Shown here one piece after another: positions 3,747 to 46,063 of a DNA stretch of 64,000 nucleotides (its first letter is position 1; each line of letters starts with the position of its first letter). The DNA is from Undaria pinnatifida. Lineage: Eukaryota > Sar > Phaeophyceae > Laminariales > Alariaceae. Made by a program: the position numbers and the translations under genes. The notes below the pieces were generated by a model that saw only the letters and a program-made list of their open reading frames with translations, searched no databases and was not told where the DNA came from. The stretch lies in NCBI GenBank assembly GCA_012845835.1, contig JABAKD010000023.1, forward strand, positions 17,414,751-17,478,750, read 5' to 3'.

Positions 3747-3964
3747 GCGACAGGTGCTAGAAAAACCAACCCGCTTCACGTCCGTCGGTCTACAACTGGT
3801 CGGCTTGTCTGCCACACAGTGTTCCGGTCGATGAAGTCGATTAAACGATTCTTCCGCTATAGGTGCCAGACAAAACAAGCCGTTTAACATCTGTCGGTAT
3901 TCAACCGGTCAGCTTGTCTGTCACTCGGTGCTCCGGTCGATGAAGTCGATGAAACGATTCCGAT
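3747..3964 (-). repeat. 109-bp tandem duplication of the PIPK exon end
   Basis: Two units (about 3747-3855 and 3856-3964) share CCGGTCGATGAAGTCGAT at 3824 and 3933. The right unit contains the end of the last PIPK exon; the left is a diverged copy lying in what would be the 3' UTR. The duplication therefore arose across the stop codon and did not change the reading frame of the right copy. Confidence 0.8.
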
Positions 3965-4050
3965 ACTCTTGTGGGGGAACGGCAGAAATGTCGTGTCGGT
4001 TATAAACCACGCCCTTCGCCGCCCTCTCCAGCACTTTCCAGGCGTTATAT
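3921..4050 (-). CDS. PIPK last exon (C-terminal end, with stop)
   Basis: Terminal exon of a phosphatidylinositol phosphate kinase, an enzyme that phosphorylates the inositol ring of membrane phosphoinositides. On the minus strand it follows an acceptor reading cttccacag and runs 130 bases to TGA at 3923-3921. The first base completes an Arg codon split by the intron; 42 residues follow. They contain YNAWKVLERAAKG, the region around the specificity (activation) loop, then ISAVPPQEYRNRFIDFI, which matches the conserved PIPK end (S-x-V-x-P-x-x-Y-x-x-RF-x-x-F). Length and stop position suit the family. The end of this exon is duplicated in tandem just downstream (3747-3964). The phase fits the donor at 42987. 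Transcription is not proven. Confidence 0.82.
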
Positions 4051-4237
4051 CTGTGGAAGTATTCATGGTTCAGCACAAAGAGTTGGTAAAGATGAATACG
4101 GTCGCTTCTTGGCAGTGATCGGCCGTATACTTTGGGATGCTGGATTGATTCGTCATGTAAATTAATGGTCGAAAAAACATGTTTCATACATATATCTATC
4201 GTCTAGATTACAGGGGTGGACGCAGAGCTCGTTGGGT

Positions 4238-4468
4238 TGTTCACCACCACCACCACCAACACCACAACCAACACCACCACCTCCACCAACACCAGCACCA
4301 GCACCAGCATCAGCACCAGCACCACCACTACCACCACCACCACCGCCGCCGCCAGCAGCAGCGCCTGAACCACCCCCACCCCCACGCCCATCCCCCACCG
4401 CAACCGCAACCGCAACCGCAACCGCAACCACAACCGCAACCACAACCACGATCACAACCACGACCACA

Positions 4469-4509
<41 letters not shown>

Positions 4510-4542
4510 AACAACAACAACAACAACAAAAAACATTAACAA

Positions 4543-4595: not shown

Positions 4596-4599
4596 TGTA

Positions 4600-6050: not shown

Positions 6051-6053
6051 AAC

Positions 6054-6330: not shown

Positions 6331-6332
6331 AC

Positions 6333-6870: not shown

Positions 6871-6915
6871 AAATGGAGTTCGATATTTCGGATCTTCAAC
6901 ACAACTTCTATATCG

Positions 6916-9537: not shown

Positions 9538-9649
9538 TCTTCTTTTGTTTCCTAGCTTAGTCATTAGAACATTTATCACGCATTCCCTTCGAGACGGAGC
9601 ACCGTTCCTACCCCAAATAGTGACACCTCCAACATTTGGGCGCTCATAA

Positions 9650-12600
9650 CTCCTTTTCCATATATTACAAGAAAAATTGTTTGCTCATCTTATCCCCTTC
9701 CTGTTTCGCCGTCTGTAGACGCCATCTATCTCCTGGGATAGCGATCGTTTTCTCGATACCCTCTGGTCTACTAAACCCCTCCATGTCGCATTCATCTGAT
9801 TTCCTTATCTCATCCTTCACATCCCGTTCTTCCTTGCATATTTCACATTCTCCTACTATATGATTCCTACTCTATTGTTGTGCCACACGGGCACACATCT
9901 GCATTCACGTCCTGCTCCTTCTGACTACTGGTATATCCCTTTCTTCTTTCTGGTAGGTCCAGGTTCCCCACCCGAAATCGCAGTTTCAGCATTTTCGCGT
10001 AGCCGTGCAAATACGTTTTCGTTCCAATATCTTCCCTCAACCCCCCGTGTGTCTCTAAGTGATCCTCCTCGGTCACCTTATTTCTTAGCACTAGCCTTTC
10101 CCTCTCTTCTGTTCTTTCTTTTACTTCTGTCCTGCACCCGCCATACTTTATGGACAGTCCCTCTTCTCGGTCTCCCCCTAAATATTTTCATGTTTTCTCG
10201 GCTACGTGTTCCCATCTTATTCCAGCTCATTCCAGCTCGTCGCTTTGTTACTTTCTCCCATACAGCCCTATCAGCTATGGCTGGCATCCTCTTTTCTGGC
10301 ATACCCTTACTTTATATTGCTATTTCAACTTTCTCACGCCTAATTCGTTTTTGGTGGGTACAGTTCTACTTCTGCTGTCAATGCTGTATTACTCGTCGTA
10401 CATGAGCATCCTAGTATATTTTTAGCTGCTGTCATCTGCACTGGTTCCAGTTGTTTTACGAGTTTAGTGTTCGTTTCCCATGCTTCTCCTGCATACTCCA
10501 GCTTTGGTACAACCACATGCATCAGAATACACTTTTCAATCCTAATGTCATGGAGCGAGTCTATTAGGATCGCATCCATCTTGCCTACTTATGCTTCATC
10601 TTTCCTGGTAATTTCGCTACGTGTGCATCCCAAGAGCAGTACTTTGATATATCTACGCCAAGACACGTATACTGGTCCATGATCGGTAAGTCATCGACTC
10701 CCTACTTCCATGTGAAAGCTACCGGATTCACTTTATCTTCGTTTCATACAACTGCTGCGCACTTTTTTTCGTTCGCTGTCACTCCCCATTTCCTGGTGCT
10801 CTCTAGTGCGTTCTCTATCTGTTTCTGCAACCATTCGGGTGTTTCTGATATCCCCGCAATAGCATCCGCAAACATCAACCCCGATAGTTACCTCATCTTG
10901 ACCCCTTGCTTTGCTGCTTCGACTGCTACTGTCATGTCATTAATATATACCTTTAGTAAATTGGGTGATAGCGTACATTCCTGTGCAACTCCTGGTAAAT
11001 TATCAACATACTTGGATATTTCCCCGTCTAGCATCACAGCACTTCTCGTACACTCCGTCATATTTTTCATTGTTCTCCACATATTTCCTTTGATCCCAAT
11101 ATCCCACGTATTTTGCCACAACCCATTCCTCCATGCTGTGTCATACGCCTTCTGTACATCTAGGAAGAAACAGTACGTCGTTGGCCGGCGTCATTCCGAC
11201 CATGAATATTATTACCTAATGTGTACACATTGCCTACGCAGCTACGGTTTGGCCTAAACCCTGCTTGCCCTTCGCTTATGTTTTCGTCCTTCTCCAACAT
11301 TGTTCCCATTCTATCTTTCAAAATCTTACAGAGTGTTTGGCCTACGGTGCTTACTAGCGCTATCCCTCGATACTTCCCCGGGTCAGCCTTGTCTCCTTGA
11401 AGATTCCTACTGCTCCTTCCCTCCACCGCTTAGGCGCGTACTCGCTTTTTCCATATCCAATTCTACAACACAACCATCATCGTAAGCATACCTTCTCCCC
11501 CGTACTTCATGATATGATCTTATGGCTTTCTATTCCTAAGTTTAGCTACACACTTCTTTACTTCCTATCTTGTAAACTATCTCTGTAACCCATCTGAATC
11601 ACGACATTCCCTTTCTGATACGCCGACGTTCGCCTCTGCCCACGCGTTGATTTCCTTGTCGAATTCTGCGTCGAACGTTTCGTTTGCTGTGGGCGTTCCT
11701 AGCTTGCGGTAATGCTCGTTAAGTATGTAATGCTCGACAAGTACTTCCCTGTTCCCCTTTGAAATACTAACCATTCTACAGTTATGTGCTGTTAATGTAA
11801 TTATTCCCATGCCTACCTCGCCTGCTTTGTTGGCCGAGTATCCCTTTTATCCCTGCCCACATCTGCTTCATCTAGCCATCAAAGTCTTCGTTTGTTTTAT
11901 GAATAATAATGTATTTCTATATCCCGTCTCCTCTACCATATATAGTTTACTTTCTTTCTAGCTGTAGCATACTCCTCTCATCCTGCCGTAGTTATACTCG
12001 ATGTATCCCTTGCGTGCGCCTCTCTCCGTGCTCTCATGGCCTCTTTTAATCCTTCGTCCAACCATTTTACCGCTCTGTTCTATATTTTCAACTTCCCTAT
12101 TGCTTTGTTGTGTTCTTGACCAATTTCTCCCATCCTTCTATAATTCTGGCCCCTGCAATATCTCGTTCCGTATAGTTCTCTGCTGTACCTATGCTTTCAA
12201 ACAGCTCGGAAACACGGTCTGCATTCTTGGCAATTTCTTTTTGGAGCTCTTGCTGTTTTTCTTCGACTTGTAGTGTATCTGTTCTCCATCTGTGCAATTT
12301 CCTATCGCGTCTATTCTTCATAATTCTCGTCTGTTGAATCTCTGTCCATATTAGGCCGTGGTCTGTACTCCCGACGCCCGCTGCACATACGTGTATTTCC
12401 GTTTCCTTATTCTTTCTATTTTCTAACATTATGAAGTCAAGAACGGAGTTTTACCCCATGGGTATGCACTGTCCAGTCTTGTCTGGCCCTGCCTTTTTAA
12501 CTCTATCGGTCAACGTCTTCATCTCGCTGTTCTTGAAGAATTCCGACATCTCTGCCCCATTCTTATTCTTTGTTACTTCCCTGTATTGTCCAATGTTTTA

Positions 12601-12700
12601 ATTTGGGTCGCATGCCTTCCCAATTCTTGAACCACAATTTCCAGCGAATACTATTCTCCTTGCCGTTTATATGTTTGTACATGTACTGCTATCTCCCCGA
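9650..12700 (-). pseudogene. LINE ORF2 remnant (endonuclease, reverse transcriptase), copy 1
   Basis: Pieces in several frames on the minus strand. STDHGLIWTEI (about 12360) is the end of an APE-type endonuclease. KYRGIALVSTVGQTLCKIL and EGQAGFRPNRSC (11250-11370) are the first RT blocks. GVAQECTLSPN (about 10985) is the block before the active site. The active-site block reads GLMFADAIAGI near 10870-10895, so the second Asp of FADD is lost. KLEYAGEAWET (about 10490) is the region after RT. The copy cannot make a working enzyme. Confidence 0.85.
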
Positions 12701-13262
12701 ACTACTCTTGTAACTCTGTCACCGTACTCTTTGACTCTGGGGGTATGTAGATGTTTCCTAAGCAAAAATATTTCGCGCCCCTATCCCTTGGTACCCTTCA
12801 CCATATGACTTCGTCAAATGTTGTGTCTCCGATCTCCTCAATTATGTCACACAAGCATTCTTTGACTAGGAACGTACTCCCACCGCCCCCCTATTGTTGC
12901 TATCCTGTCCCTCTCTCTTCTTCCCTGTCCATGCGTATTCTCCAACTTTGCATCCTATTTCCTCTCCCTCTTTCTCCCACGACTCTTGAATTCCCTCTAT
13001 ATCTGGAACCCTACTCCCCCCGCCCCCCTATTCTTGACATCTTGTCTCTTTTTCTTTTCCCCTATCCATGCGTCCCCTCTAACTTTGCATCCTACTTTCC
13101 CTCTCTCTTTCTCCCACGACTATTGAATTCCCACTATATCTAGGTCGCGATTACTTGTTCGATTATTTCTAGCCTTTTTACGCTCTGCCGGGGCGAATCC
13201 ACATACGTTATATGATCCTGTTCTCAGCTTATTTTTCGCTTTACTCTCCACTCTACTCTTAT

Positions 13263-13682
13263 CTAATATTCCTTCTGCATATTTACTACCCCTATTCTCT
13301 CTATTTTGAAGAGAGTCTTTCCGCTTCTGTTTCTGGCTTTGTATATGTCTGTTTGTTCTGCACCACCACTGTTCTCCCCCATATCCTTTGGGCCTTTTAC
13401 TATCTCCTGCCTCCCCTTGTCTCCGTTCACTAAAGGACTGCGGCTTAGTTTCGCTAGTCCATTAGCTATACATACTCTCCATCCTAGTCTTCTAACCCAT
13501 GCCGACACTTTTTCTGTCTCTATCCTCTGCCACTCCGTGCTCACTTTCGGCGTTTGCGTGGCTCTGAAATGCTCTTCCTCCCTTTCTACTGTTCCTACTG
13601 CAAAGCGGTACAGTCCCACTTCGTTGCACTTCTTCTTGAACTCTATTCTCGTCATGTCGCTCGGGACTCCCAATATCAGCAC
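13263..13682 (-). pseudogene. LINE upstream frame (ORF1-like or ORF2 N-terminus), copy 1
   Basis: A 139-codon open frame upstream of the endonuclease region; shared in pieces with copy 2 (34681-35089), for example KVSAWVRRLGWRV against KVAAWVRRLGWRV. Lys/Glu/Arg-rich as in nucleic-acid-binding ORF1 proteins, but no domain is recognised. Confidence 0.5.
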
Positions 13683-13692
13683 TACAAGTGAT

Positions 13693-14640
13693 TACCCTTC
13701 CAATATTTCCTTTCCCACCCACCCTTTCTCACCGTCTCTATCTACCTTGTTTTTTCGATTGTTGGTAGTGGGAAATGTTCAAGTTACTGGGACTGCCCAA
13801 TACTAGTGCCTGTTGAGGGTCTGGTGTCTGTCAGTTCTTTGGCCGGCGCACCACACTAGATTGTGTCTCCAACGCGAGCTCGTAGCCTGGAGCCAAGTTC
13901 AACACCTATAACACAAGTACCTCGCATTTGTGTCAGGCGATCTGCATGCTAATCTTCCTGGCGTCCCACGATCGTATCATCTATCTTCTTGCCCGTTTGC
14001 TGTACTGGTTACTTCCTCCAGGGAGGTCATATTTACCATGCAAGGTTCAAGGACGGCTTGCGTAACACAAAGTCTTACTCACATATCGGGATGCCCCGTA
14101 CGTCGCTTTCTCCATCGTACGTACGTTTTACCATGGGTAGCTACCCCACTAATACTCCCGAGTATACCTTCGCTGTCGAAAGCTTCGCCAACGATTCCCC
14201 TACATTTTGTACCGGCTTCTATCCTTCAAGATACCAAGATATCTACGTGCCGCTTTGTGCTCTTGCTCTTTGGCCATGTGGTCGGTCATTGCCAACGTGT
14301 TTGTTTCATGAGTAAAGTAAGTGTGACTTTATAGCCATGCATCATCCACCCCTCCCCTTCATTCGGCGCATGGCATGTGCAATGTGCACCTAGTGTCCGG
14401 GATTTTAGGATGATGTCTGGCCAGATTTCCACCGCCTAATGGAAATCGGTAATGTTTTCCCGGTATCTCACCACGAGCCCCAACCTTTATGCAAATTGGA
14501 CATGTCAGGGTGACCATGCTGTAGCTATGTGTGTGCACGTAGGGTGGTCCGCCGTCTTGCCTGGTTTTGGTCTATGTTTCGCGCTTTCTACACTACAGCA
14601 TATTGCGATATATGAGAAAATATATACTAGGTATCTATAC
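13693..14640 (-). repeat. LINE 5' region, copy 1
   Basis: Shared with 36413-37385 in copy 2 and free of convincing frames. It is probably the 5' untranslated region of the LINE. In copy 2 a Helentron-like element sits at its boundary with the coding part. Confidence 0.6.
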
Positions 14641-15030
14641 GAACTATGTATTTATTTTATTTTATGCCTAATTCTTTTTTTTTCTTTTGGTGGCATGATT
14701 TCAAAAAACAGTTAGTCGAGTAATGCGTTTTGGTGAGGTAAAAAAAAGGGTTTCATGTCTATATCCGGTTGAGTTTTGGTATGGGGAAACAAAAAAAATA
14801 CTCTTTCAGTCATTTTATGTCTTAATCTGGTTTGTATTGTGGGATGGGGAAATAACTGGTTAGTTCAGAGATTCCATGTCTATTTCTGTTTTTGTGTTTT
14901 GGGATGGTACACAAAAAATACTGCTCAGCCGAGTTATTTGATGCGAGTTATTTGATGTCTATAGTACATAGGGTATGGATGTGTTTCGGGATGGTGAAAA
15001 AAAAAAAACGTTTAGACCGATGTTAATGGA
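14640..15030. repeat. 65-bp satellite, block 1
   Basis: About six decayed units of the form TGGTTAGTTGAGTTATTTCA-TGTCTAAATCTGGTTTGTG-TTTTGGTATGGGAAAA. It adjoins the 5' side of LINE copy 1, as block 4 does for copy 2. Confidence 0.75.
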
Positions 15031-15639: not shown

Positions 15640-15910
15640 GGTCAAATCTCTCCGGTCGGGTCGGGTCGGGTCGGGTCGGGTCAGCTGACCCGACCCGACC
15701 CGCGTGATTTTCGAGACGTCTTGACCCAACCCGACCCGACCCGCGAGATTTTCGAGACGTTTTGACCCGACCTGACCCGACCCGCGAGATTTTCGAGACG
15801 TCTTGACCCGACCCGACCCGACCCGCGAGATTTTGAAATCGTCCTGACCCGACCCGACCCGACCCGCGACAATCCGGGGGACCCGCGAGATTCGGGTCGT
15901 CTGGCGGGTC
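15640..15910 (-). repeat. hAT subterminal array (GGGTC/GACCC), left of element 1
   Basis: About five units of 50-55 bp: GACCCGACCCGACCCG, then CGAGATTTTCGAGACGT. In hAT elements repeated subterminal motifs are usually where transposase binds; that role here is inferred. Confidence 0.85.
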
Positions 15911-16200
15911 ACGTTAGCTTGACCGGTGACATTTCTCACGGGTCAAAGTCAAACATTCACGGGTCAAAGCATGTATACCTCGGTCGGTTGGTTGGTTCTT
16001 GGTCCCTCGTACTTTTCCCAGTATGCCGTCTTCTCTGCGTTTTTTACCGGCATTGTTTGCAGCTGATGATTATGTCATGTGGTGTGCGCTCGAGAAATAG
16101 GAAAGAAACCGCAACCCACATGCATGGACATGCCCGTACCGCTAGACCACCGGGTCGACCCGACGAGTGACCAGACGAGCGAGCTAGTCATAAGTTATAA

Positions 16201-16655: not shown

Positions 16656-16959
16656 AAAATTAATACTGTTGTTACGGCTTCAGTAGGTACGGGATTCGCG
16701 TCACACTGCTGTATGCCTTGGTACGAGTACCTAGGGGTACTGCCTGGTGATTGTTCTGCACGCTGTGATGACATATGATCAGAGCATCGGCACGAGGGAG
16801 GCAGGAAGCGGAAACGTTTGTATTTTATTGGCGGACCCGCGGGCCCGACCCGCGGGGCGCCTGCACGGCATCAATGTGGCTCTCAGCTGTAAGTTTGAAA
16901 AAGGCGGATCCGCCGGCCAGATCCGCGGGTTTGACCCGCGGGTCAGCCTAAAACAACTC

Positions 16960-19168: not shown

Positions 19169-19169
19169 A

Positions 19170-28485: not shown

Positions 28486-29391
28486 TTTCAGGGCGGGGGG
28501 GGGAAGGGGGGGGCGGGAGGGCGGGGGGGCGAAACGGGGGGGGCATTTGTTGCTTGCCTTAGCCCTTTCACCAATGACCACGCATCTCGTTCGAGACGGA
28601 GCGCCGTTCCTACTCCTAGTAGAGACACTTCCAACATTTGGGCGCTCATTACGTTTCTTCCATACACTACATAGAAACTGTTTGCTTATCCTATCCCCGT
28701 CCTCTTTCGCCGTCTGCGGCCACGATCTACCTCCTACGACAGCCGATCGTTTTCTCGCTACTCCCTAGTTTATCAAACTCTCCCATGTCACTTACGTCTA
28801 ATTTCCTCGTCCCCTCCTCTAACGCATTCCGTTCCTCCTTGTATATTTCACATTCTCCTACTATGTGAGTCCTTTTTCTATTGCTGTGCCAATCGGGCAC
28901 ATATCTGTAGCCACATCGTCCTCCCGACTACTGGTATATCTCTTCTTTGTGGTAGATCCAGGTTCCCTACATGAAATCGAAGTTCGAGATTTTTCGTGTA
29001 GTCCATTGGGCCGTGCAGATACGTTTTCATTTTAATGTCTTCCCCCAACCCCCGTATATATAAGTGCTTCTCCTCTTTCACCTCATGTCTTAGCGCTTGC
29101 CTGTCCCTTTTTTATATTATTTCTTTTACTTCTGTCTTGTGCCCGTCAAGCTTCTCTATAGGCAGTACTTCTGCTTGGTCCCCCCCTAACCCCTTCCATA
29201 TTTTCTCGACTACGTTCTCCCATCTTATTCCAGCTCGCCCTTTTGGTATTTTCTCCTACACAGCCCTGTCAACTCTGGCTGGCATTCTCTGTTCTGGCAT
29301 ATTATTTACTTTACATTGCCATTTAAACTTTCTCACGTCTCTATTTGTTTTAAGTGGGTACATTCCTAGTTCTGCTCTTAATACCGTAGTT

Positions 29392-31985
29392 GTTTTAGTA
29401 ACGCAAGCGAATGAGTATCATTCGCGTTGCTTGTCTCCAGGCCCGATTTAGGCCCGCCTATTTTTTAACGCGGATCTCGGCGTGGGTTCGTGTGCTTGGG
29501 TGCAGACAAGGGTAAACCGACGCTCTCCCGCCGCGCGGGCGCGTGCTCGTCGAGGCACGAGCGAAAGCGTTTGGGTGTGGGTGAGACAGTACCTGGTGTC
29601 TTTTCTTGCGGGATAACTAGACGTGTCCGAGAAAATAAGGACCGTTTTGACTTCAACATAAGGACAGATCTCGGCATTACACCTCCGGACAGAGCGGATG
29701 TCAACAGGATGAGGCTGGGAGGTGGACGCCAGAGGCAGCTGAGTGTCGGAACGAGCGCCACAGGGCACGGCTTGCATCTCTCCGCGCGGGCGACGGGGCT
29801 CAAAGGGACATGGAGCGGGGAAAGCTTGGAAGATGACGCCGAGCGCGGCGTGGGTGGCGAGGGTGGCATGCGTAGCGAGGGTAGCACGCACTACCCAGTC
29901 TCTATACAGGAAGAAACATTTACGAACAGAGGTTTACACCATGGGCACGGTCCAAAGATATATAACATTCTTATTGGCGATGGACAAACTTTTTCGGGTA
30001 TAGACGGTGCCTTTGTGGCCGAAATCGGTTACCATTCTATTTCAGTGTTCGCCACGCACCCAGGACGCTATCTGCTTGGCTGGGTGGATCGGTTCGAGCT
30101 CTGTTACTATTATTGTACACACATACACAAATTGTGGGTTCATGGGGAGGGTGCTGGTGGACTTGGTTTATGTTGTATGCTGTGCTGTACTAGGTGCCAT
30201 GTCCTGCTGTAGTACAGGGTGGCACCGTCTTATTATGCTCGCCCGCCGTTGATGGATCGCTCGCTCGCTCGCCCACCCGCCGTCGCTCGCCCCCCCGTCG
30301 GCGCTCGCTCGCCCACCGCCGCCACCGTCGGGAGGCCTTTGGCCGCCCTCATCACTCGCCCGCCGTCGCTCGCTCGCTCGCCGTCGTTCGATCGCCCGCC
30401 GCCGCTGTTGTCATGATTATTACCGCGTGCCGATATGATACTTCTACAACACCAGAGGTGTTTACACATGCATGCTACAGTACATCGATCGTAAATCGCA
30501 ATGCATGCACCCCCAGCTAAGCTCAAGCCCAGCAAAAATATATAGCTGCCTTCGTGCTGCGCTGCGGTGAGGTGCCGTGTCGTGCTGCGCTTTCGTTCGA
30601 ACATACAGCAGCACCAGGTATGATGCGAAGTATCAGGTACCAGGTACCGTTATGTACGTACGTACGTGTTGTGTATACTCGTTTTTTGTTTTCTTCATTC
30701 AGTTGATTGTCATCTCTTGGTTCCCGTGTATGTTTCACCCCCCGTAAAATACACCCAAACTGCCGATCAGAACGTGACATCGCCAACAAGCACACAGCAC
30801 ATTGTATAGCACAGGGCAACTAGCTCTGCACAAGCAGCTGCCCTTGGCATTATCAATTCGCTAGACCCAACAATCCATGGGCCTCTTCTTTCTGTCTCCT
30901 TTACATCTGTTTCAGTTGCATTCTTCCTTGCGCGAGAGCGGAGCCCTTGCACATTGACTGCAAAAAAAGGGCTACACATACATGCTGTTGGAGGTTTCTT
31001 GTATCGCGTTTTGTGCTGCACCGCTAGCGCTACACGAAGCTATGCGACGCGAGCTACAGCAGGGGACCCGACGCCTTCTTGGTTGCCGCCCGCAGTGCCT
31101 GCTGCTTGTGTCGTCGGTGTGCGCACCCATACCACGGTGATACCAGTGTACCAGTTACGACGTACCCGGTACAGCACACGGCACAGAACACAACCAATAG
31201 TCTGTCTGATAGCTACCTGACAATTGGCTGTTAATCCCTGACTTGGAATACCTCGCACGGCGAGCTCATCAATTCAAATAAGACCCCCTGCCGAAGGTAT
31301 CTCAGAGCACTCAGCTGCAGCACCAGGGCCTGCGGCTGTTGTTACGCCAAGGAGCTCACCAGCGCGTTGCGGCTGTTGTTACGTTCATGCGTCTTATTCG
31401 AGCTACCACAGCAGTGATTGGTCGAATATAATTTTTTGAGGGGTTGTTTTGAAACTGCCCCTTTGGGAAAAACTGAAATAATTTCTGGAACTCCCGCTTC
31501 AAGCAGTTTTTAGCACCGCTTCTGGTCGAGCTGTCTACAGGGGTGGAAAGGGCTGGCGAACCGCTGATAATATCCATATGTGCTCACACTGTCCAGTTGG
31601 GCACGGAAAGGCCGACCCTCAAAGCCTACCCATGTCAATTTTTGTTCGCGCCATGTCGAGATATCGTTGATGCTGCAAACGCAATGGACGGATCAGTGGT
31701 GCATGTGGTGCAGCACCTGGGTGGGGGCGTGTCGGTGAGCTCTCGACACAGATTTCGTCTCACACCCCCCACCTCTGATGCTGAAAGTCGGCCGAGGCCG
31801 ACGACATGCGCTAGGCTGTCGAGGCATGCAAAATTTGTCGCAATGCTGCTGCTGTCGCCGGAGAACGGGTTTTTGGGGTCAATCGATCAAGGGGTACTCC
31901 TGGTTATATTTTTTGTGCTTCATTAAAAGCGGACTTCACCAAATCATTTCCGTTTGGGAGACTCCAAGCTGAAGCCTGGAGAATT
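29392..31985 (+). mobile_element. Helitron-like non-autonomous element, copy B (inside LINE copy 2)
   Basis: Comparing LINE copies 1 and 2 shows exactly what was inserted: copy 1 reads GCTGTATTACTCG where copy 2 reads CCGTAGTT, then 2594 bp, then ACTCG. There is no target duplication, and the junction fits insertion at TT. The left end has GCGAATGA-gta-TCATTCGC, a perfect 8-bp stem; the right end has CTCCAAGC-tgaa-GCCTGGAG (one mismatch). CCAGGC blocks near both ends are partly inverted copies. No protein is supported, including the 240-codon frame at 29490-30212. Confidence 0.55.
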
Positions 31986-32181
31986 ACTCGTCTTACTTGA
32001 GCATCCTACTATGTTTTAAGCTGTTGTCATCTGCAGTTTCCAGTTGTTTAACGAAATTCGCGATCCCTTCCCATGCATCTCCTGCCTACTCTAACTTTGG
32101 TACAATCACTTTTATCAGAATACACATTTTAGTACTAGTGTCAAGTTGCGGGTCTGTTAGGATCGAATCCATCTTGCCTAC

Positions 32182-32721
32182 TTACGCTTTACCCTTTCTT
32201 ATTACTTTCGCTATGTGTGCATCCCAAGAGCAGTCCTTTGAGATCTCTACGCCAAGGTACATATATTGGTCTACGATCGGAAATTCATCTTCTCCCCACT
32301 GCCATTTGAAATAAACCCGATTCGACTTCTCTTCGTTACATACAACTACTGCGTAGTTTTTCACGTTCGCTGTCACTCTCCACTTCCTAGTGTACTCTAG
32401 TGTTATCTCAACCTGATTCTGCAATCCTTCGGGTGTTTCTGGTATCCCCACGAATTTATCCGCGAACGGCAATCCCGACACCGTATCTTTCCCCAACGTG
32501 ACTCCTTGCTTTGCTGCTTCAAGTGCTACTATCATGTCATCAATATGTACCTTAAATAGATAGGGTGATAGTGTATATCGCTGTGCAACTCCTTGTAAAG
32601 TATCAACATATTCGGATTTTTCCCCGTCCAGCATCACAGCACTCCTCGCACATTCCGTCACTTTTTTCATCTTGCTCCACATCTCTCCTCTGATCCCAAT
32701 CTCCCACATGTTTTTCCACAA
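32182..32721 (-). pseudogene. LINE reverse transcriptase fragment, copy 2
   Basis: A 179-codon frame with the catalytic half of RT: GVAQRYTLSPYLFKVHIDDM (residues 44-63), GLPFADKFVGI (83-93) and KWRVTANVKNYAVVVCNE (113-130), then QYMYLGVEISKDCSWDAHI (152-170). The active-site FADD is FADK (residues 86-89), losing one of the two metal-binding Asp residues. Copy 1 has FADA at the same site. Confidence 0.9.
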
Positions 32722-33845
32722 CCCATTCCTCCATACTGTGTCATAGGCCTTCTGTACATCTTGGGAGAAACAGTACGTCGTTAGCCCGGCGTCTTTCCTA
32801 CCTTAAATAGTATAACCTAATGTGTACACATGATCTACGCAACTACGGTTTGACCCAAATCCTGCTTGCCCTTCGAATATGTTTCGTTCTTCTCCAACAT
32901 TGTTCCCATTCTATCATTCAAAACCTTACAGAATGTTTTGGTGACATTGTTCCCATTCTATCATTCAAAACCTTACAGAATGTTTTGCCTGCGGTGCTTA
33001 GTAGCGTTATCCCTCCGTTGCTCCCCGGGCCAGCCTTATCTCCTTTCTCGACAAAAGTTTACCACTACTCCTTCTCTCCACCTCTTACGCGCATACTCGT
33101 TCTTCCATATCTAATTATACAACATAACCATCACGGTAAGCAAACCTTCTCCCCCGTACTTCATAAAATAATTCACTATTTCATCTGCCCTTGCTTCCTG
33201 TCCATTATTCAGTTTAGCTACACACTTCTTTACTTCTTCTCTTGTGAACTCTTTCTGTAACCCGTCTGAACCACGGTCCTCCCTTTCTGATGCACCTACG
33301 TTCGCCTCTGCCCACGCGTTGATTTCCTTGTCGAATTCTGCGTCGAACGTTTCGTTGGCTGTGGACGTTCAAAGCTTACGGTAATGTTCTACGAGTACTT
33401 GGCTCTTTCCCTTCGAGCTACAGCCATTTTACCGTTCTGTGCTCTTAGTGCAGCTATTCCCGAGTCTGCCTCGCCTGCTTGTTGACCCAGTATTCCTTTT
33501 ATTCCTACCTACATCTGTTTCATCCCACCATCTACGTCTTCGTTTGTTTTAAGAATGGCGTCTTTCCACAACCCCTTCTTCTCTACCACCTCTTTTACGT
33601 TCTTTCTAGCTGTAGCATACTCCTCCTATCCTGCCGTAGTTGTATTCGATGTATATCTTGCGCACGCCTCTCTACTTACTCTTATGGCCTCTTTTACTTC
33701 CTCATCCCACCATTTTACTGCTCTGTTGCATATTGTCAACGTCTTCCCTATTACTTTACTTGCTCTGTTCTGACCAATTGCTCCCATCCTTCTATAATGC
33801 TGTCTCCTGCACTATATCGTTCCGTATCGTTCTCTGTTGTACCTA

Positions 33846-34082
33846 TTATTTCCAACAGCTCGGAAAAACGCTCTGCGATCTTGGGAATCTCTTCTTGGAA
33901 CTCTCGTTGTTTTTTTTTACTTCTAGCTCATCGATTCTCCATCTGTACAGTTTCCTACCACGTCTATTCTTGATAACTCTCGTCGTTTGACTCTCTGTCC
34001 ATATTAGACAGTGGTCAGTACTTCCTATGTCCGCAGCGCATACATGTATTACCGTTTCCTTACAGTTTCCATTCTCTATCAC
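33846..34082 (-). pseudogene. LINE endonuclease tail, copy 2
   Basis: Contains GSTDHCLIWTE, the S/T-D-H block that ends APE-type endonucleases, then a basic linker (KNRRGRKLYRWR). It matches copy 1 at 12097-12429. Confidence 0.75.
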
Positions 34083-35160
34083 TATGAAGTCAAGAACGTA
34101 TATATCTCCCTTTTGTATGCACTGTCTAGTCCCATTCTGGCCCTGCCTTCTTCACTCTATCGTTCAATGTCTTCGTCTCGTTGCTCTTAAGGATTTCCAA
34201 CATCTCTGCCCCATTTTCATAACTTGTTACTTCCCAACATTGTCCTATGTTGTCGTTTGGGTTACTTGCCTTCCCGATCCTTGGGCATGTAGGTGCTTCC
34301 TAAGAAAAATATGTTCTTCCCCTCTTCCTTGGTACCCTTATCTATATGCTTTCGTCTTATTTGGTGTCTTCGATCACCTCTATTATGTCACGCAAGAATG
34401 CTTTTACTAGGGGTCCCACTCCCCCTGCCCCCCTATTCTTGCTATCCTGCCCCTTTTTTTCCACTATCCATGCGTAATCTCCAACTTTGCATCCTATCCC
34501 CCCCCCCCCCTGTTTATCTCATGACTATTGAACTACCACTATATCTAGGTCGTGATTACTTACTTGTTCGACTATTTCTAGCCTTTTGCGCTCTTCCGCG
34601 GCGAATCCACAAACGTTTCATGATCCTACTCACAGCTCCTTTTTCGCTTGGACATGCACTCTATTTTTGTCTATGGTACCTTATCCATCTTTACTACTCC
34701 TATCCTCTCTACTGTGAACTGTCTCTCCGCTTCTGTTTCTGGCTTTGTATATGTCTGTTTGTTCTGCACCACCACTGTTCTCCTCCATATCCTTTGGGCC
34801 ATTCACTATCTCCTGCCTCCCCTTGTCTCCGTTCACTCCAGGACTGCGGCTTAGTTTCGCTATTCCATTAGCTATACGTACTCTCCATCCTAGTCTTCTA
34901 ACCCATGCCGCCACTTTTTCTGTCTCCATCTTCTGTCACTCCGTGCTCGCTTTCGGCGTTTGCGTGGCTCTGAAATGCTCTCCCTCCCTTTCTACTGTTC
35001 CTATTGCAAAGCAGTACAGTCCTACATCGTTGCACTTCTTCTTGAACTCTATTCCCGTCATGTCGCTCGGGACTCCAAAATATCAGCACTATTAGTTATT
35101 CGAGCGAAGCGAGTTTCTAATCTACAACTGGGCCTCGCAATATAGACTCCCATGAAAAAA

Positions 35161-35376
35161 AAATAGTTTGCACGAGCGGGTCTTCGTCTAAACTTGATTT
35201 TAGTGTGGGATCATTTGATTTTAGACTGCAGGTGTAGGCAGACCACCACGGAGCAACAAAACACACAAAATAGTTTGCACGTGCGTGTCTTCGACTGAAC
35301 TTGATTTCAGTGTGGGATCATTTGATTTTAGACTGCAGGTGTAGGCAGACCACCACGGAGCAACAAAACACACACA
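35161..35376 (+). repeat. 107-bp tandem duplication in the Helentron-like element
   Basis: AAATAGTTTGCACG starts both units (35161 and 35268); both run to CCACGGAGCAACAAAACACA with few changes. Confidence 0.88.
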
Positions 35377-35662
35377 GCAGACCACACGGGCAAAAACAGC
35401 AGCACACACCGCTCGCACAGCCGGCACACAGCGCTCACACAGCGAGCAGCACACAGACAACGGGTGCAGCGGGCAACAATAGTGGCCAGCGGAGAGCGGG
35501 CATGGAGAGTGTGTGCCCGCTAGGGGTGTGTCCGCTGAGTGTATCTACTGCTGTCTCGTGGTGAGAGTAGATCATCATGGAGAGACGTCCGTTGGGGGCG
35601 ATTGACTCAAACTCGGTCCGTGCGCCAACGCCAGAAGGGCGACAGCAGACACGGCGGAGGGG

Positions 35663-36254
35663 CTTGAGAGGGACCTCTACCTAGCTAAGGGAGCCAAGGA
35701 CATGCTCACGAAGAACCTGTACCAACAAGTTGGACTCGTGAACGGCATTCGAGGCCAAGTCGTCGAGTTGGTGTTTGCAGACGACGCGCCCCCGCCGAAC
35801 CTCCCCCTTTACGTTGTCGTCAAGTTCAGAGGGTACTCAGGGGGGGGATGGTCGTCTCAGAAAAGATATAAAAAGATATAGAGGGTAAGTGCCGATTTCT
35901 CCCGTAGACACTACTTGGCAGGACGGGGGAACGCAGGTCAGGACGCAACTGCCGTTGAGGCTCTGCTGGGCCATCACTACGCACAAATCACAGGGGCAGA
36001 CGTTAGAGAAGGCCGTCATAGACTTGGGGCCGAAGGAGGCCTGCACGGGGCTTACTTTCGTCTGGCTCAGTGGGGCTAAAAGACTAGCGGACCTTATGGT
36101 AGAGCCAATGGGTTTCGACAGGATAGGCAAGCTTGGAAACTCCGACACCATGAAGGCTAAATTGCGGGAAGAGGTTAGGCTGTTGGACTTAGCACAAAGC
36201 ACGCGGGGTAGGTACATAGGCATGGGCGTCTTCAACGCCGTCGCGGCCAACTAA
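35663..36254 (+). pseudogene. PIF1-type DNA helicase, C-terminal remnant
   Basis: Two frames together give the last third of a PIF1-family helicase. Frame 1 (35663-35877): LYLAKGAKDMLTKNLYQQVG and NGIRGQVVELV with PPNLPLYVVVKF. Frame 2 (35889-36254): VPISPVDTTW, RLCWAITTHKSQGQTLEKAV and CTGLTFVWLSGAKRLADLMV. THKSQGQT is the conserved helicase motif near the end of the family. A frame change and stops near 35875-35888 break it, and the N-terminal Walker motifs are missing. It may be the helicase of the element or a captured host PIF1 gene; AWAITTHKSQG is closer to cellular PIF1. Confidence 0.85.
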
Positions 36255-36374
36255 TGACCACATCAATTGCAATACAACAAACGTCACATCGGCTCTATTC
36301 CACCTGTGGTGCCCCTCGCAACTACACGAACCAATGGCCCGTGGACGCACACGTCTGACGACAGTTACATCTAT

Positions 36375-36402
36375 TAGCTGTCGCTCGTTTTAGCGACAGC
36401 TA
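36375..36402 (+). terminator. 3' hairpin of the Helentron-like element
   Basis: TAGCTGTCGCT, loop CGTTTT, AGCGACAGCTA: 11-bp perfect stem, ten bases before the element end. In Helitron-group elements this hairpin marks the end of rolling-circle transfer. It is a transposition terminator, not a transcription terminator. Confidence 0.85.
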
Positions 36403-36412
36403 TTGCATCTTT

Positions 36413-37385
36413 TACCCTTCCAATCTTTCCTTTCCCACCCACCCTTCCTCACCGTCTCTCCCTCGATCTCTTCCGAGCATATCTCCAGCTTGTCTTTAGT
36501 ATTGTTGGTGGTGGGAAATGTTCAAGTTACTGGGACTTCCCAATCCTAGTGCCTGTTGAGGGTCTGGTGTCTTTCAGTTATTTTGCCGGCGCACCACACT
36601 AAATAGTGTCCCCAACGCGAGCTCGCAGCCTGGAGCCAAGTTCAACACCTATAACACAAGTACCACACGTTTGTGTCAGGCGATCTGCATGGTAACCTTC
36701 CTGGCGTCCCACGATCGTATCATCTGTATTCTTGCCCCTCTGCTGTACTGGTTACTTTCCTCCAGGGAGGTCATATTTACCATGCAAGGTTCAAGGACGG
36801 CTTGCATAACACAAAGTTGTACTCACATCGGGATGCCCCGTACGTCGCTTCCTCCATCGTATGTACGTTTCACCATGAGTAGCTACCGCACTAATGCTCC
36901 CGAGTAGACCTTCGCTGTCGAAAGCTTGGCCAACAATTCCCCTACACTTTGTACCGGCTTCTATGCTTCAATATATCAATATATCTACGTACCGCTTGGT
37001 GCTCCTTATCTTTGGTCATGTGGTTGGCCATTGGCAATAGGGTTTGTTCAATGAGTGCAGTAGGTCTGACTTTATTGGCATGCATCATCCACCCCTCCCC
37101 TTCAATCGGCACATGGCATGTGCACGGAGTGTCGGGGATTTTAGGATGATGTCAGGCCAGATTTCCACCGCTCAATGGAAATCGGTAATGTTTTCCGGTT
37201 ATCTCACCACGAGACCCACCCTTCATGTGTATATAACAGGTCGGCATGGCCTTGCTGTATGTATGTGAGTGCATGTAGGGTGGTCCGCCGTCATGCCCGG
37301 TTTTGGTCTATATTTAATTATTTCTCTACTTGCAGTATGTTGCGACATAGGAGAAAATATACACCAGGTATCTATGCGAACTATT
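36413..37385 (-). repeat. LINE 5' region, copy 2
   Basis: Aligns with 13693-14640 in copy 1. No conserved frame; probably 5' untranslated region. Confidence 0.65.
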
Positions 37386-37695
37386 AATATGTATTTGTTT
37401 AATTTTATGTCTAAATCTGTTTTTTGCTTTGGTATGGTAAAATTGATTAGCCGAGTTCTTTTAGTTTATATATCGTTTATGTTTTGGTATGGGAAAAAAA
37501 GGGTGGTTGAGTTATTTTATGTCTATAGACTATCCGGTTGGGTTGTGGTATGTGGGAAAAAAAAATGGGTCATTGAGTCACTTCACGTCTAAATCTGGTT
37601 CGAATATTGGTATCGAAGAAACAAACTGGTTAGTTGAGTTATTTCATGACTAGTCTTTATACGGCTTGTGGCTTGTTATGGGAAAAAAATACATA
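37385..37695. repeat. 65-bp satellite, block 4
   Basis: About five units, joined to the 5' side of LINE copy 2 as block 1 is to copy 1. The shared arrangement suggests that the satellite is part of the LINE's 5' end or a preferred neighbour. Confidence 0.75.
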
Positions 37696-41004: not shown

Positions 41005-41006
41005 GC

Positions 41007-42070: not shown

Positions 42071-42986
42071 TATATATCGTTTGGGGGGGATGATCACACC
42101 TTTGTCCCCTATGGTCGGAAACACGCCGGTATTTTAAGCGGTAACACAATATATGCGTGTTTTTCTTGTGTTACGGTAATATTAGTTGCAAAGTTGGCGT
42201 CGTATATACTCGGGCACAAGTGTCATGCATATATTCCATACGTAATGCTGTAAAATATTCGGTTAAGACCGACGGCGGCAGCACCAGCCGATACTCCAGG
42301 ACACAACCGGTTAGAGGAAACTCCGGTTATCGTCCGGGATCATAGATCGCATTCAAATTGAAACTGTGGGCATAGTTGTGCTAAACACGTGTTTAGGCCG
42401 GGAGCAATAGACCAAAGACAAACCAAAAATTAGTTTTGCCGTTAGAGACCCCAATAAACTGCGGAGTACCGATTCATATCTCGGATGTTGCTCTCTGCGT
42501 ACAACCTACCTATTCCGTCGGCACTTCTTTGCCGTAAGTATCACCGTGGTTTTGCGCTTCGCTCTTCTCGTTTCCCCTCTGCATTAAGTCAATGCATTTC
42601 AAGCGGGACGAAAGAAGAAAAACAGAACGGGAAACATATACCTATGTGCCGGGGGCACGCCAAAGGGCGACACATGCAAAATGGATACCAGAAAAGCGCC
42701 AAATTCGAGTTCACTGGAAGTGAAGCACACACTATTAAGGTATACAGTCTGTACGACAATCCCGAAATGTGCTAACCCGTGGTACAGTAGTTCGGCACAG
42801 CCCGTTAATTCCTACGGCATCCGGATCCCATGCAGTCTCTAAAAATGCAATGCCGCAGTTATTCGATCCTTCCCGCTAAATATCGCATTGGCGGAACCCC
42901 GTAGAGTCTCGAAAGGTGCAATCCCGTGGGAACAGGTGTCGAAGAATAACCTGGTTATAATAGAAAACGGATCTGCGGGTTCTCAC
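42070..42986. other. PIPK intron, right end; no gene seen
   Basis: Low-repeat sequence leading to the donor at 42986-42985. A 96-codon plus frame (42485-42775) has no recognised motif. Transposons stop about 900 bp short of the exon. Confidence 0.5.
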
Positions 42987-43054
42987 CTTTGCAGAACATC
43001 AATGATTCCCACGTAATAAACCACGCCAGGTTCCCGTCCAGGATAAACACCAAC
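42987..43054 (-). CDS. PIPK internal exon (GIIDVLQ motif)
   Basis: A 68-base exon on the minus strand. It reads VGVYPGREPGVVYYVGIID followed by VLQ and two bases (AG) of a split Arg codon. It carries the PIPK motif G-I-I-D-x-L-Q, whose Asp binds metal in the family. The acceptor is ccctag before GTTGGT and the donor is GTGAGA after CTGCAAAG. It enters in phase 0, matching the MDYSLL exon, and leaves with AG, which pairs with the A that opens the exon at 4050 to make Arg. The V-G-V start continues MDYSLL as in MDYSLLVGIH of known kinases. The family's variable insert is very short here (about 11 residues). Confidence 0.85.
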
Positions 43055-45922
43055 CTAGGGCGCATGTCGCGAAAAAGGAAGGCGGAAGGAAGCGGTGTAT
43101 CAATCTTAGCCTCAGTCAGTGCCTGGAATGGGGATTCACGTGCGTGTGCCTTTTGAATAGTCCACACAAAGCGTAGAACGTTAGTCTAGCAAGGTACCCC
43201 TGGTAAGTTTCGAGCACTTGCAGCAGTTTTGATACCCAAAAAAAGCTCACTCGCTTGACTGGGAAGAGCTTCCGTTGGCCGCTTCCGTGCATATGTCGCA
43301 AGGTCGATTGTCGATTGTACAATCTAGCGGAAACGTATGCTTGCTCCGGTATACCGACGGCCGGGGCTTGTGGGTACTACTCCGCTCATACGTTGCCTAC
43401 TAAGAGCATGATACACTGTTCCGCCCTCGACATGACCACTGTCCCAGTCTAATAGTAGAATCAACTAGAATAACCTGATGTCCATGACGCTCAACCTGCC
43501 CACCTCCTCAAAATACGTGAAGCTGCTTACGGAAAGACATACCACGTGCGGGGTTTCAACATAAGTAGGACCGACCGCGCGCCACTTGACGGCTGACAGC
43601 GCTGAATTAGAAACGCATCTTTAGGGTTTGTCTCTCCATATGATACGCCCATATATCGTGTCCTTGCGCAATCGCGCCCACCAGCGTGCAGCGCCAGCCT
43701 CACATGCGCCGGGGAGGGGTTCGACCCCGCTCACGCCGTCTCGGTCAAGCTCGTGCGAGCGGCGGTAAGCTGAGAAATATAATCCATGTACGGTATTTGC
43801 GCCGAGGTTGCGACGACGTACGGCTTTCAACCACATTCTCTACGTTAGATAATTGTTCTGTATGTGCAGAATAAGAACTTTATTTCCTGTACGTTGCGCT
43901 GTTGGACGTTTAAAAGGCAGTGATGCCCATGATATCGGGTAGTCCGCATGCAAGACAAAAAATGTCCTCTAACGACTATGAGCACACAATCAACGTTTTC
44001 GTAGGCACTTTAGTCCATGATCGCCCCTCCAGCGCAGCGGGAAAATCAATTCCTTCGCTGGCGATTCAACCCACGTGCTGCTGTAGTCGACTAGATTGTG
44101 GCTGTTTTAGGGGCCGACCGGCCAACGTTTGTTTCCAGATATACGTATGTTTTCTATGGATCTTCAGGCGACTTCCGGAAGTTGTGTACTGTAAGTCGAG
44201 CTAATTTTACATCCCCAGCGACTTCAAGTACAAACCACAACCCAACCTTAGCACTGACGCATTTCCTATTAGCGACCTCCACTTGCCGAAATATCTCGAT
44301 CATTGCGGGCGTATACAGAGCTCGGAGGGCGCAGCCTCTTGTACGCAACGCACTACGACGCATTGGACTACATAGTTATTCGCACACCATAAGGCCAATA
44401 TGCCATGCCATGCAAAGGCAGTAGAGAGGGCCAACACTGACGGCAAGGGGAACGAGGGGGGGGGAAGAGGGGGGACAAGCGTGACAACAGTTTTGATACC
44501 GCTATAAACTAGACTCAGAAAATAGTGGCAGATCGTGCACCAACGATCCCGCTCGACTATGATAGTAGATCACAAGGTGTGGTGTTTCTGCGTCGATTTA
44601 CTTCTTCTATTCTACATAATTTCATTTTTCTTTCTCCTGATTGTTTGTTTTAGTATGTTCTCTTTGGTATCCAGAACGTATGACATAGATTTGCTAGCTG
44701 ACACTTTGATTGCTAATCTCCACGTACTTGCGATTATATCCCGGGCTACTAGCTTATGCCCACATTACTCGGACTTTTGTTATAGAAATACCAATCAATA
44801 CGGATACCGGGTGTGCTACATGTATATAAAGAAAAAAAATAATGCGAAACGACACATGCTCACAGGTACGCCTGAAGAATGGCTCAGACTAATAGGACAA
44901 TTTATTTACATAGTCACCTGCCAACGAAATCAAAATCATTATCAATACACAAATCAGAGGCACCTGCGATCTGCGGCCTCCCGTCCGAGTCTCCACGGGC
45001 AAAACACGAAATACGAACGAACCCACAGCCCACGCGGACTTGACGGCTACCGACAGCATCGCCAAGGGTACAGCCAATACCGCCGGGTGTGGCACGCGGG
45101 GACGGTGTACGCCCACCTTCGGAAAAGAAACACGAAGAGGAGATCACGTCATGAAAAGGGTAGGCCGAACGACCTACGGACGGACGGATGGATGAACGGG
45201 GATTGCGACTTGCGCGGGGTATCAATCGGAGGGACGTGAGGGTGCTTAAACGACTTAGTACAATGCATCAGGTTTCCAGGCGGTCGTCTTTCCCAAAATG
45301 TAAGACCAACCACGCCTATCCTTGTCTATCATCGCAGCGGAGGGGATACCATCATGTGCGCATGAACAGGTGTTTTCTGCTTCAGGTTCCATGCATGTCC
45401 GGAAATCGTGTCAAAGCTGAGTGCAAGGGCTGCAACTGAGATGCGCATCATGACCGAATAGATCTGTATCGGAACCGGACATCCCGAAGGAAGACATTTC
45501 ACCGGCAGCGGACCAGCGGGGATTGCCATACTTGTACGCACGGGACTGAAGAAAATACGACGGCACCGTAATCCGACCAGTTTCTGTAAGTAGACTGCCA
45601 ACCACGTTTTACCGTTGCGAAATACGACTCCTCGAGGACCACGTTAGCCCTGACAGCAACAAAGCCACAACTTAACTGGAACATGCCCCTGAAAAGAGCA
45701 AAATTATCGCCAGTAATATAATATATATCGGACCCGCTTCACACGCCCATACAACCAATACAACACGCAGATCATATCGGCTGCGCCAATAATCGCCTAT
45801 AGTCGATTGAATCGATATCGTCCTCGGCAGCCGAACTACAAGCTTCGGCCTTCTGCACGTGCTTGATATACCCTGGGTACGTAAGTTGATCCCGACCGCC
45901 GCAATAAACACCTAGATCTTAC
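43055..45922 (-). other. PIPK intron of 2.87 kb
   Basis: Lies between the MDYSLL and GIIDVLQ exons. It is almost free of the repeat families seen elsewhere. A 234-codon plus frame (44535-45239) has a hydrophobic start (LLLLFYIISFFFLLIVCF) but no recognised domain. A G9 tract occurs near 44457. Confidence 0.6.
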
Positions 45923-46063
45923 CAGCAAGCTGTAGTCCATAACGCCGTGGACTGCGAGGAAATCAGCGTCTGCTGTGACATCCGCTAGCAGCCTCTCCTT
46001 ATAGCCGGCAGCCAAGCGTAGTTTACCATTGGTACTCTCCGCAAGATCCAGATCTTTCATCAC
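45923..46063 (-). CDS. PIPK internal exon (KDLDL to MDYSLL)
   Basis: A 141-base, 47-codon exon on the minus strand. It begins VMKDLDL and ends GVMDYSLL. In PIPKs the KDLD segment leads into the catalytic loop, and the Asp of MDYSLL is catalytic. The acceptor is aatggcag before GTGATG; the donor is GTAAGA directly after CTG (phase 0). The 39 residues between the motifs (AESTNGKLRL, YKERLLADVTADADFLAVHG) have the spacing expected for the helix between them. The frame stays open past the donor, but the extra residues do not resemble the family, which supports splicing. The preceding DLKGS exon was sought up to 64000 and not found. Confidence 0.85.

What the first reader, a model, noticed from the sequence alone, without database searches (positions are those of the whole stretch)
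3921..46063. A kinase gene with a 38.9-kb last intron made of transposons
Three PIPK C-lobe exons lie on one strand in the right order with GT-AG ends. The split Arg codon (AG at 42987, A at 4050) joins GIIDVLQ to YNAWK exactly. The intron 4051-42986 holds two LINEs and a fragment, one hAT, one Helentron-like and one Helitron-like insertion (a second lies just past the 3' end) and several satellites. If spliced, it would be an extreme intron for a protist or alga and a good case of a gene surviving heavy invasion.
Basis: partly seen in the sequence, partly recalled or inferred. Interest (0 to 1): 0.85.

Follow-up and report, generated by a model that had tools for sequence, protein, structure and literature searches.

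The report
Kelp kinase gene with three giant introns
A lipid-kinase gene of a brown seaweed, coding for only about 475 amino acids, appears to be spread over 234,000 bases because three of its introns have swollen to 39, 74 and 114 kilobases with mobile DNA, in a genome whose introns are usually about one kilobase.

Summary
The three exons and the 38,936-bp last intron are real. The direct join of exon 45923-46063 to 42987-43054 is wrong as the main form: orthologues carry about 50 more residues there, and the missing exon lies at 44964-45116. The 5' exons lie beyond the window, same strand, right order, across introns of 73,943 and 114,312 bp. The model has 10 exons, 475 aa and a 233,579-bp span; all introns are GT-AG, phases fit, no internal stop. 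The product is a PIPK, 59-70% identical to Scytosiphon and Ectocarpus proteins. Controls: 80 kinesin exon pairs never exceed 9.1 kb; the homologous last intron is 2.0 and 1.3 kb in two paralogues. At least 69%, 30% and 32% of the giant-intron DNA examined is repeated, against 0% of two exon clusters. No transcript was available and 70 kb of the longest intron was not read. Splicing is inferred, not shown.

The parts
3921..4050 (-). Exon E9, last coding exon (..YNAWKVLERAAKG..IDRSTE stop)
   Evidence: 35 of 43 residues identical to Scytosiphon P0004
4051..42986 (-). Intron E8-E9, 38,936 bp, GT-AG, phase 2; at least 69% repeated DNA
   Evidence: homologous intron 2,033 and 1,347 bp in paralogues (counted)
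42987..43054 (-). Exon E8 (VGVYPGREPGVVYYVGIIDVLQ)
   Evidence: 21 of 22 identical to P0004, 22 of 22 to P0005
43055..44963 (-). Intron E7-E8, 1,909 bp
44964..45116 (-).
   Evidence: tblastn E 7e-12 against the Ectocarpus stretch; boundaries
45117..45922 (-). Intron E6-E7, 806 bp
45923..46063 (-). Exon E6 (VMKDLDL..MDYSLL)
46064..64000 (-). Window part of intron E5-E6 (73,943 bp in all, continues to C30:17534756)
9544..14882 (-). LINE-like element copy 2, about 5.3 kb, weak RVT_1 match at 10891-11190 (E 1.5e-4, below Pfam cut-off)
28546..37652 (-). LINE-like element copy 1, RVT_1 at 32185-32802 (E 4.4e-9), split by two later insertions
29390..31983 (.). Insertion X (about 2.6 kb) in LINE copy 1; hairpin near one end; relative at 473-3481; rolling-circle-like by form only
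   Evidence: empty site in copy 2 at 10388
35101..36411 (.). Insertion Y (about 1.3 kb) in LINE copy 1; ORF 35606-35878 (+) with Pif1 2B domain
   Evidence: E 1.2e-8; empty site at 13692-13693

Best explanation
This is an apparently single-copy, intact nuclear gene for a phosphatidylinositol phosphate kinase (PIPK) of a brown alga, most likely a kelp and probably Undaria pinnatifida. It has 10 exons (E0-E9) on the minus strand of contig C30, 17418671-17652249. Three of its nine introns have grown to 114,312, 73,943 and 38,936 bp by repeated, nested insertion of mobile elements; the other six are 194-1,909 bp. The spliceosome is expected to remove the giant introns by ordinary GT-AG splicing in single steps, giving a roughly 475-aa kinase. 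Shown: exons, order, strand, phases, open frame, homology, intron lengths in the assembly, repeat content of the parts read, nested insertions in the last intron. Inferred: transcription through 234 kb, splicing, kinase activity, species name, and that mobile DNA also fills the unread 70 kb.
For: All 10 exons in order on one strand; every junction GT-AG and phase-compatible; the joins agree with those implied by orthologous proteins that cover them. 475 codons without a stop. Pfam PIP5K 220.6 bits for a 254-aa version lacking E0-E2 and E7; PDB PIP4K/PIP5K sequence matches, best E 1.3e-26. A model of the Scytosiphon orthologue matches PIP4K/PIP5K structures. The Ectocarpus N-terminus has only 2 matches at E<=1 in the 511-Mb genome, both at the expected place. 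The PF01504 search (22 matches, 119 of 1903 candidates scored) lists other PIPK loci that are different paralogues, and at least two polyglutamine chance matches. Last intron at the homologous position in two paralogues, 2,033 and 1,347 bp. Kinesin control: 48 adjacent exon pairs, median 882 bp, maximum 4,457; 80 ordered pairs, maximum 9,105. Repeats cover at least 69% of the 39-kb intron, 30% of the 74-kb intron and 32% of the 31.8 kb of the 114-kb intron next to E2, and 0% of two exon clusters with short introns. No clear host-gene domain in the intron ORFs scanned (135 of 152; 130 of 291) apart from this gene's own exon.
Against: No RNA evidence. The protein of this genome has more private changes than the other brown-algal sequences against the Choristocarpus outgroup: 26 v 12 (P0004), 16 v 9 (P0005), 23 v 14 (P0009), 34 v 19 (P0032) (p 0.034, 0.23, 0.19, 0.053; not independent). 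This could mean relaxed constraint. 70 kb of the 114-kb intron could not be read, so gaps or a nested gene there are not excluded. E0 rests on weaker similarity (25 of 54 aligned residues against P0009, 27 of 84 against P0032) and its start codon is unsure. The end of E9 and its flank are tandemly duplicated (109-bp unit). Strict recursive-splice sites, which help some long introns elsewhere (recalled), are absent from the 144.6 kb scanned.
Confidence: 0.85

Rival explanations
1. The gene has recently died or is dying: transposons have stretched it beyond what the alga can transcribe and splice, and the exons are young relics still in frame.
For: More private changes than in the other brown-algal sequences; no spliced kelp protein recognised among the hits of two searches; partial tandem duplication at the 3' end.
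Against: No stop or frameshift in 1,428 nt and all 18 splice sites canonical despite only 59-70% identity to P0004, P0005 and P0009; core residues K223, D355 and D429 kept. The two LINE copies in the last intron are 76-86% alike, with two later insertions in one of them, so that invasion does not look brand new. Absence from the protein collection says little: one search scored a capped candidate list and few hits came from named brown algae.
Confidence: 0.1
2. The giant introns are partly an assembly artefact, in which repeat-rich contigs were wrongly joined or expanded.
For: The introns are repeat-rich and no reads were available; 70 kb of the longest one was not read.
Against: No N in any fetched stretch. 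The Undaria paper's contig and scaffold totals differ by 252,000 bp, so joins there appear to be padded with N (inferred). The exons are same strand and in order, which random misjoins would not give. In public contigs of the same or a very close alga, ORFs of E5 and E6 sit on contigs with different recorded maximum lengths (33,319 and 34,782 bp), which fits a large gap between them.
Confidence: 0.06
3. The locus is read as two or more transcription units (shorter isoforms, an internal promoter in the 114-kb or 74-kb intron, or trans-splicing), so one 234-kb transcript is never made.
For: E2-E9 alone would encode the whole kinase domain; E0-E1 lie 114 kb away. Ectocarpus models P0005 and P0006 start within E3.
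Against: P0009 and P0032 join E0-E1-E2 in one protein, and P0004 runs from within E1 to E9. The late starts of P0005 and P0006 may be prediction artefacts.
Confidence: 0.12
4. Exon E7 is skipped in this alga, so the first reader's three-exon join is the real mature form.
For: E7 is 153 nt, phase 0-0, and its counterpart in P0004 is largely modelled with low confidence. Its donor GTGCCT is a weak match to the consensus (recalled). The models P0010 and P0032 end at MDYSLLV or just beyond and so give no support for E7.
Against: Scytosiphon P0004 and Ectocarpus P0005 and P0006 include it; 25-27 of 51 residues are conserved and the frame is open.
Confidence: 0.08

Closest known systems
Brown-algal PIPK orthologues (Scytosiphon promiscuus P0004, Ectocarpus P0005 and P0009, Choristocarpus tenellus P0010; EukProt P0032, organism not named)
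   Same: Same domain order; same N-terminal extension (P0009, P0010, P0032); same about-50-residue insertion in the kinase domain (P0004, P0005). Identity 65, 70, 59, 44 and 54% for P0004, P0005, P0009, P0010 and P0032.
   Different: Their intron lengths could not be measured here. This gene carries three introns over 38 kb.
PIPK paralogues in the same genome (C23, C28, C35)
   Same: PIPK exons; in C23 and C28 an intron at the homologous place after GIIDxLQ (not found in C35).
   Different: Their PIPK hits span only about 11-17 kb, and the homologous intron is 1.3-2.0 kb.
Transposon-inflated giant introns, e.g. Drosophila Y fertility genes (PMC13370334, PMC12965833; listing and start of abstract only)
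   Same: Normal-sized coding sequence in huge repeat-filled introns.
   Different: Those introns reach megabases on a Y chromosome. This one is in a brown alga; sex linkage was not tested.
Known brown-algal introns
   Same: Ectocarpus has dense intronic transposons (PMC12477816, passages).
   Different: Ectocarpus median 524 bp on autosomes and 765 bp on the sex chromosome; S. japonica mean 1,816 bp (PMC11836290, passages); longest S. japonica lipoxygenase intron 9,722 bp (PMC5712309, passages).

Membership tests
PIPK (Pfam PF01504) | Family profile match above cut-off | tested here: met
   220.6 bits v cut-off 27 for the 254-aa version
PIPK (Pfam PF01504) | Conserved ATP-site Lys, catalytic Asp of MDYSLL and Asp of IID (roles recalled) | tested here: met
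   K223, D355, D429 in the alignment to a PIP4K2A chain
PIPK (Pfam PF01504) | PIPK fold | tested here: inconclusive
   Tested on orthologue P0004 only, not on this protein: pLDDT 79, PIP4K/PIP5K structures at E 6e-23 to 1e-19 in the 50 rows shown; much of the E7 counterpart is low confidence
PIPK (Pfam PF01504) | Lipid kinase activity and substrate choice (PI4P or PI5P) | not testable with these tools
   needs an assay
Spliceosomal GT-AG introns | GT-AG ends and phase continuity at all nine introns | tested here: met
Spliceosomal GT-AG introns | Removal from RNA shown | not testable with these tools
   no RNA data held
Transposon-inflated giant intron | Length far beyond the genome's usual introns | tested here: met
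   38.9, 73.9 and 114.3 kb v kinesin control maximum 9.1 kb in 80 pairs; one gene family only, a second control could not be run
Transposon-inflated giant intron | Built of identifiable mobile elements | tested here: met
   LINE-like copies with RT, nested insertions in the last intron, RT ORF in the 74-kb intron; 69% repeated in the 39-kb intron, 30-32% in the examined parts of the others, lower bounds
Transposon-inflated giant intron | Ancestral shorter intron at the same site | tested here: met
   Only for the last intron: 2,033 and 1,347 bp in paralogues C28 and C23. The other two were not compared
Recursively spliced long intron | Polypyrimidine-CAG|GTRAG ratchet sites on the gene strand (motif recalled) | tested here: not met
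   0 sites in 144.6 kb with a strict motif; chance expectation also below 1; 82.6 kb of the longest intron not scanned

The most novel reading that the evidence does not exclude
A working 234-kb brown-algal gene with an intron over 110 kb, possibly among the longest in any alga or stramenopile (not surveyed here). It would show that a splicing machinery used to roughly 1-kb introns can still pair splice sites 114 kb apart without canonical recursive sites. Transcribing it would take an hour or more (rate recalled), so intron length could act as a timer for PIPK supply.
Probability: 0.45. Interest if true: 0.75.

Novelty: new member of a known kind. Interest (0 to 1): 0.6.

Why it matters
It gives one concrete gene in which to test how far introns can grow in a lineage that evolved complex multicellularity independently of animals and plants. 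The last intron exists at 1.3 and 2.0 kb in paralogues of the same genome, so cost, splicing accuracy and constraint can be compared directly. It also runs against a pattern suggested for Ectocarpus (PMC12477816, passages), that longer elements are tolerated only in evolutionarily young genes, because PIPK has relatives across eukaryotes. Gene predictors with intron-length limits would break such genes into pieces.

Tried and rejected
Rejected: the exons as dispersed copies of an intact PIPK elsewhere (the other PIPK loci listed are distinct paralogues; one search scored 119 of 1903 candidates). Rejected: E6 joined directly to E8 as the main form. Rejected: extra coding exons hidden between E5 and E6, because the orthologue proteins are covered across that join. 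Rejected for the stretch scanned: recursive splicing as the helper, on a strict motif. Rfam families in the window: 0 at gathering scores.

Led nowhere: a second intron-length control (PF00063) and copy counts of intron DNA in the whole genome, because the genome search did not answer from then on. The 5' UTR and promoter were not sought. Sex-chromosome linkage was not tested. The three-way comparison with close relatives (11 v 6 changes in 118 sites, p 0.33) is too small to decide anything, and there I aligned short pieces by hand, dropping two Scytosiphon residues in E6. The hAT element was not found. Of the intron ORFs that passed the filters, 17 of 152 (39-kb intron) and 161 of 291 (rest) were not scanned.
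Full report
WHAT WAS CHECKED. The window is C30:17414751-17478750 of a 511,146,479-base genome in 68 contigs. Joined, the 112 residues match Pfam PIP5K with 105 bits, E 5.8e-30. The intron 4051-42986 is 38,936 bp long. The window holds no N.

THE MISSED EXON. A protein search with the joined residues of the six exons then known (254 aa, the first five of which later proved intronic) found brown-algal orthologues, among them Scytosiphon P0004, Ectocarpus P0005, P0006 and P0009, and Choristocarpus P0010. P0004, P0005 and P0006 have about 50 more residues between MDYSLL and VGVYPG. That stretch is encoded at window 44964-45116 minus, tblastn E 7e-12 to Ectocarpus, with AG|GTGGGC..TCGCAG|GT edges, phase 0-0. 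It looked perfect because both exons begin with VGV.

THE REST OF THE GENE. The N-lobe exons lie outside the window on the same strand: E5 C30:17534757-17534889, E4 17535413-17535540, E3 17536521-17536669 and E2 17536864-17536999. Between E5 and E6 there is one intron of 73,943 bp. The orthologues show no missing residues at that join. A search of the whole genome with the N-terminal 120 residues of P0009 gave only two matches at E<=1, both on C30 minus, 17651995-17652114 and 17651309-17651452. They resolve to E0 17651998-17652249 and E1 17651312-17651449, and the join E1-E2 reads EMFTK|VDYTEV, like EMFTKVDCTEI in P0004 and P0009. The intron between them is 114,312 bp. The nine introns, 5' to 3', are 548, 114,312, 194, 980, 523, 73,943, 806, 1,909 and 38,936 bp. 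The model has 10 exons, 1,428 nt with the stop, 475 aa and a span of 233,579 bp; coding sequence is 0.61% of it. The start codon in E0 is a guess from the open frame.

WHAT THE PROTEIN IS. The 254-aa version without E0-E2 and E7 scores 220.6 bits to PIP5K. The full model's best PDB matches are PIP4K2A chains at 1.3e-26, with PIP5K type I at 1.3e-23 over residues 166-470. K223, D355 and D429 align with the positions that I recall as the ATP-site lysine, catalytic Asp and metal-binding Asp. AlphaFold2 on Scytosiphon P0004 (not on this protein) gives pLDDT 79 and matches PIP4K/PIP5K crystal structures. Residues 278-286 and 288-317 of P0004, within the stretch that corresponds to E7, are low confidence. 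Substrate choice (PI4P or PI5P) cannot be told.

IS THE INTRON SIZE UNUSUAL HERE. From a kinesin search of the same genome (130 matches), 48 exon pairs adjacent in the profile have a median gap of 882 bp and a maximum of 4,457. All 80 ordered pairs have a maximum of 9,105, and 9 matches could not be paired. This is one gene family; a second could not be run. The homologous last intron, after GIIDxLQ, is 2,033 bp in the C28 paralogue and 1,347 bp in the C23 paralogue (counted by hand), with the position shifted by 2 nt. In the C35 paralogue it was not found. Literature values, from passages: Ectocarpus median 524 bp on autosomes and 765 bp on the sex chromosome (PMC12477816); S. japonica mean 1,816 bp (PMC11836290); longest S. 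japonica lipoxygenase intron 9,722 bp (PMC5712309); a long-intron dinoflagellate, mean 4,709 bp (PMC10666404).

WHAT FILLS THE INTRONS. Self-comparison and comparison with other fetched DNA of the genome mark 69% of the 39-kb intron, 30% of the 74-kb intron and 32% of the 31.8 kb of the 114-kb intron next to E2 as repeated. These are lower bounds. The two exon clusters with short introns that were tested (17457737-17460813 and 17534757-17536999) score 0%. In the 39-kb intron, two LINE-like copies at 9544-14882 and 28546-37652 are 76-86% alike in their collinear blocks. Reverse-transcriptase ORFs are at 32185-32802 (E 4.4e-9) and, weakly and below Pfam's cut-off, 10891-11190 (E 1.5e-4); one more RVT_1-matching ORF reported was not located. 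Copy 1 is interrupted at about 29390-31983 (X) and 35101-36411 (Y), and copy 2 keeps both empty sites. Y holds a Pif1 2B domain; X has a hairpin near one end and a relative at 473-3481 past the gene's end. Calling them Helitron-like rests on form and on the Pif1 domain only. In the 74-kb intron, apparently one LINE-like element of at least 10 kb runs from L023:3063 to L024:3087 on the plus strand, with ORFs of 1,210 and 1,018 aa of no Pfam family and an RT ORF (E 1.6e-13). ORFs scanned: 135 of 152 in the 39-kb intron and 130 of 291 in the window beyond 46064 plus L021-L029 and L044. No clear host-gene domain appeared apart from this gene's own PIP5K exon; Helitron_like_N (1.6e-4) and a zinc knuckle (1.9e-4) are mobile-element-type matches. 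Weak single matches (E 0.0017 to 0.008: Sema4F_C, GidB, zf-RING_2, CCER1, Thionin, NCH4) were taken as chance.

DOES IT WORK. For: 18 canonical splice sites, no stop in 475 codons, conserved core residues, no second copy seen. The exons also stay conserved where the flanking introns do not: the close-relative ORFs P0002 and P0003 match 80-81% inside exons E9 and E6 and diverge beyond the exon edges. Against: the protein has more private changes than the other brown-algal sequences relative to Choristocarpus, which I use as outgroup from recall (26 v 12, 16 v 9, 23 v 14, 34 v 19; p 0.034, 0.23, 0.19, 0.053; the four comparisons share one branch and are not independent). No transcript was available. 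Strict recursive-splice motifs are absent from 144.6 kb of intron.

WHICH ORGANISM. The orthologues and the published Undaria pinnatifida assembly (511,280,173 bp in 114 scaffolds, 50.14% GC; PMC7058681, passages) make this most likely that assembly with its shortest scaffolds left out. The tools gave no name, so this stays an inference.

NOVELTY. Enlarged, repeat-filled introns are a known kind (Drosophila Y genes, conifers, grapevine; listings). Eight literature searches, read as listings with passages of seven papers, showed no report of this gene's structure or of a brown-algal intron near 100 kb. Most subscription journals are not in that library. I file it as a new, extreme member of a known kind.

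Noticed in passing
C30:17405974-17408914 and 17412098-17415037 (window about -8776..-5836 and -2652..287): A 2.94-kb inverted repeat, 99.6% identical, just downstream of the gene's 3' end, reaching into the window start; recent by its identity.
   Followed up: no
window 3744-3960: Tandem duplication (109-bp unit, 82%) of the end of exon E9 and its flank, giving a decayed second copy of the RNRFIDFIDRSTE end.
   Followed up: partly
L023:3063-9646 and L024:1-3087 (C30:17501813-17511837): LINE-like element with two overlapping long ORFs (1,210 and 1,018 aa) of no Pfam family before an RT ORF; single in-frame stops separate the three RT-side open frames.
   Followed up: partly
C2:16034374-16037637 and C2:16063521-16066784: Two kinesin loci 29 kb apart with identical scores for three exons each, suggesting a recent tandem segmental duplication.
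   Followed up: no
window 15654-17284 and 61020-61851: Arrays of GACCC/GGGTC-type satellite units on opposite strands in two different introns of the gene.
   Followed up: no
exon E7, window 44964-45116: Encodes a hydrophobic insertion inside the kinase domain (VLAVPLAMLSVAVKSAWAVGSFVF) shared by Scytosiphon and Ectocarpus orthologues; possibly membrane-contacting.
   Followed up: partly
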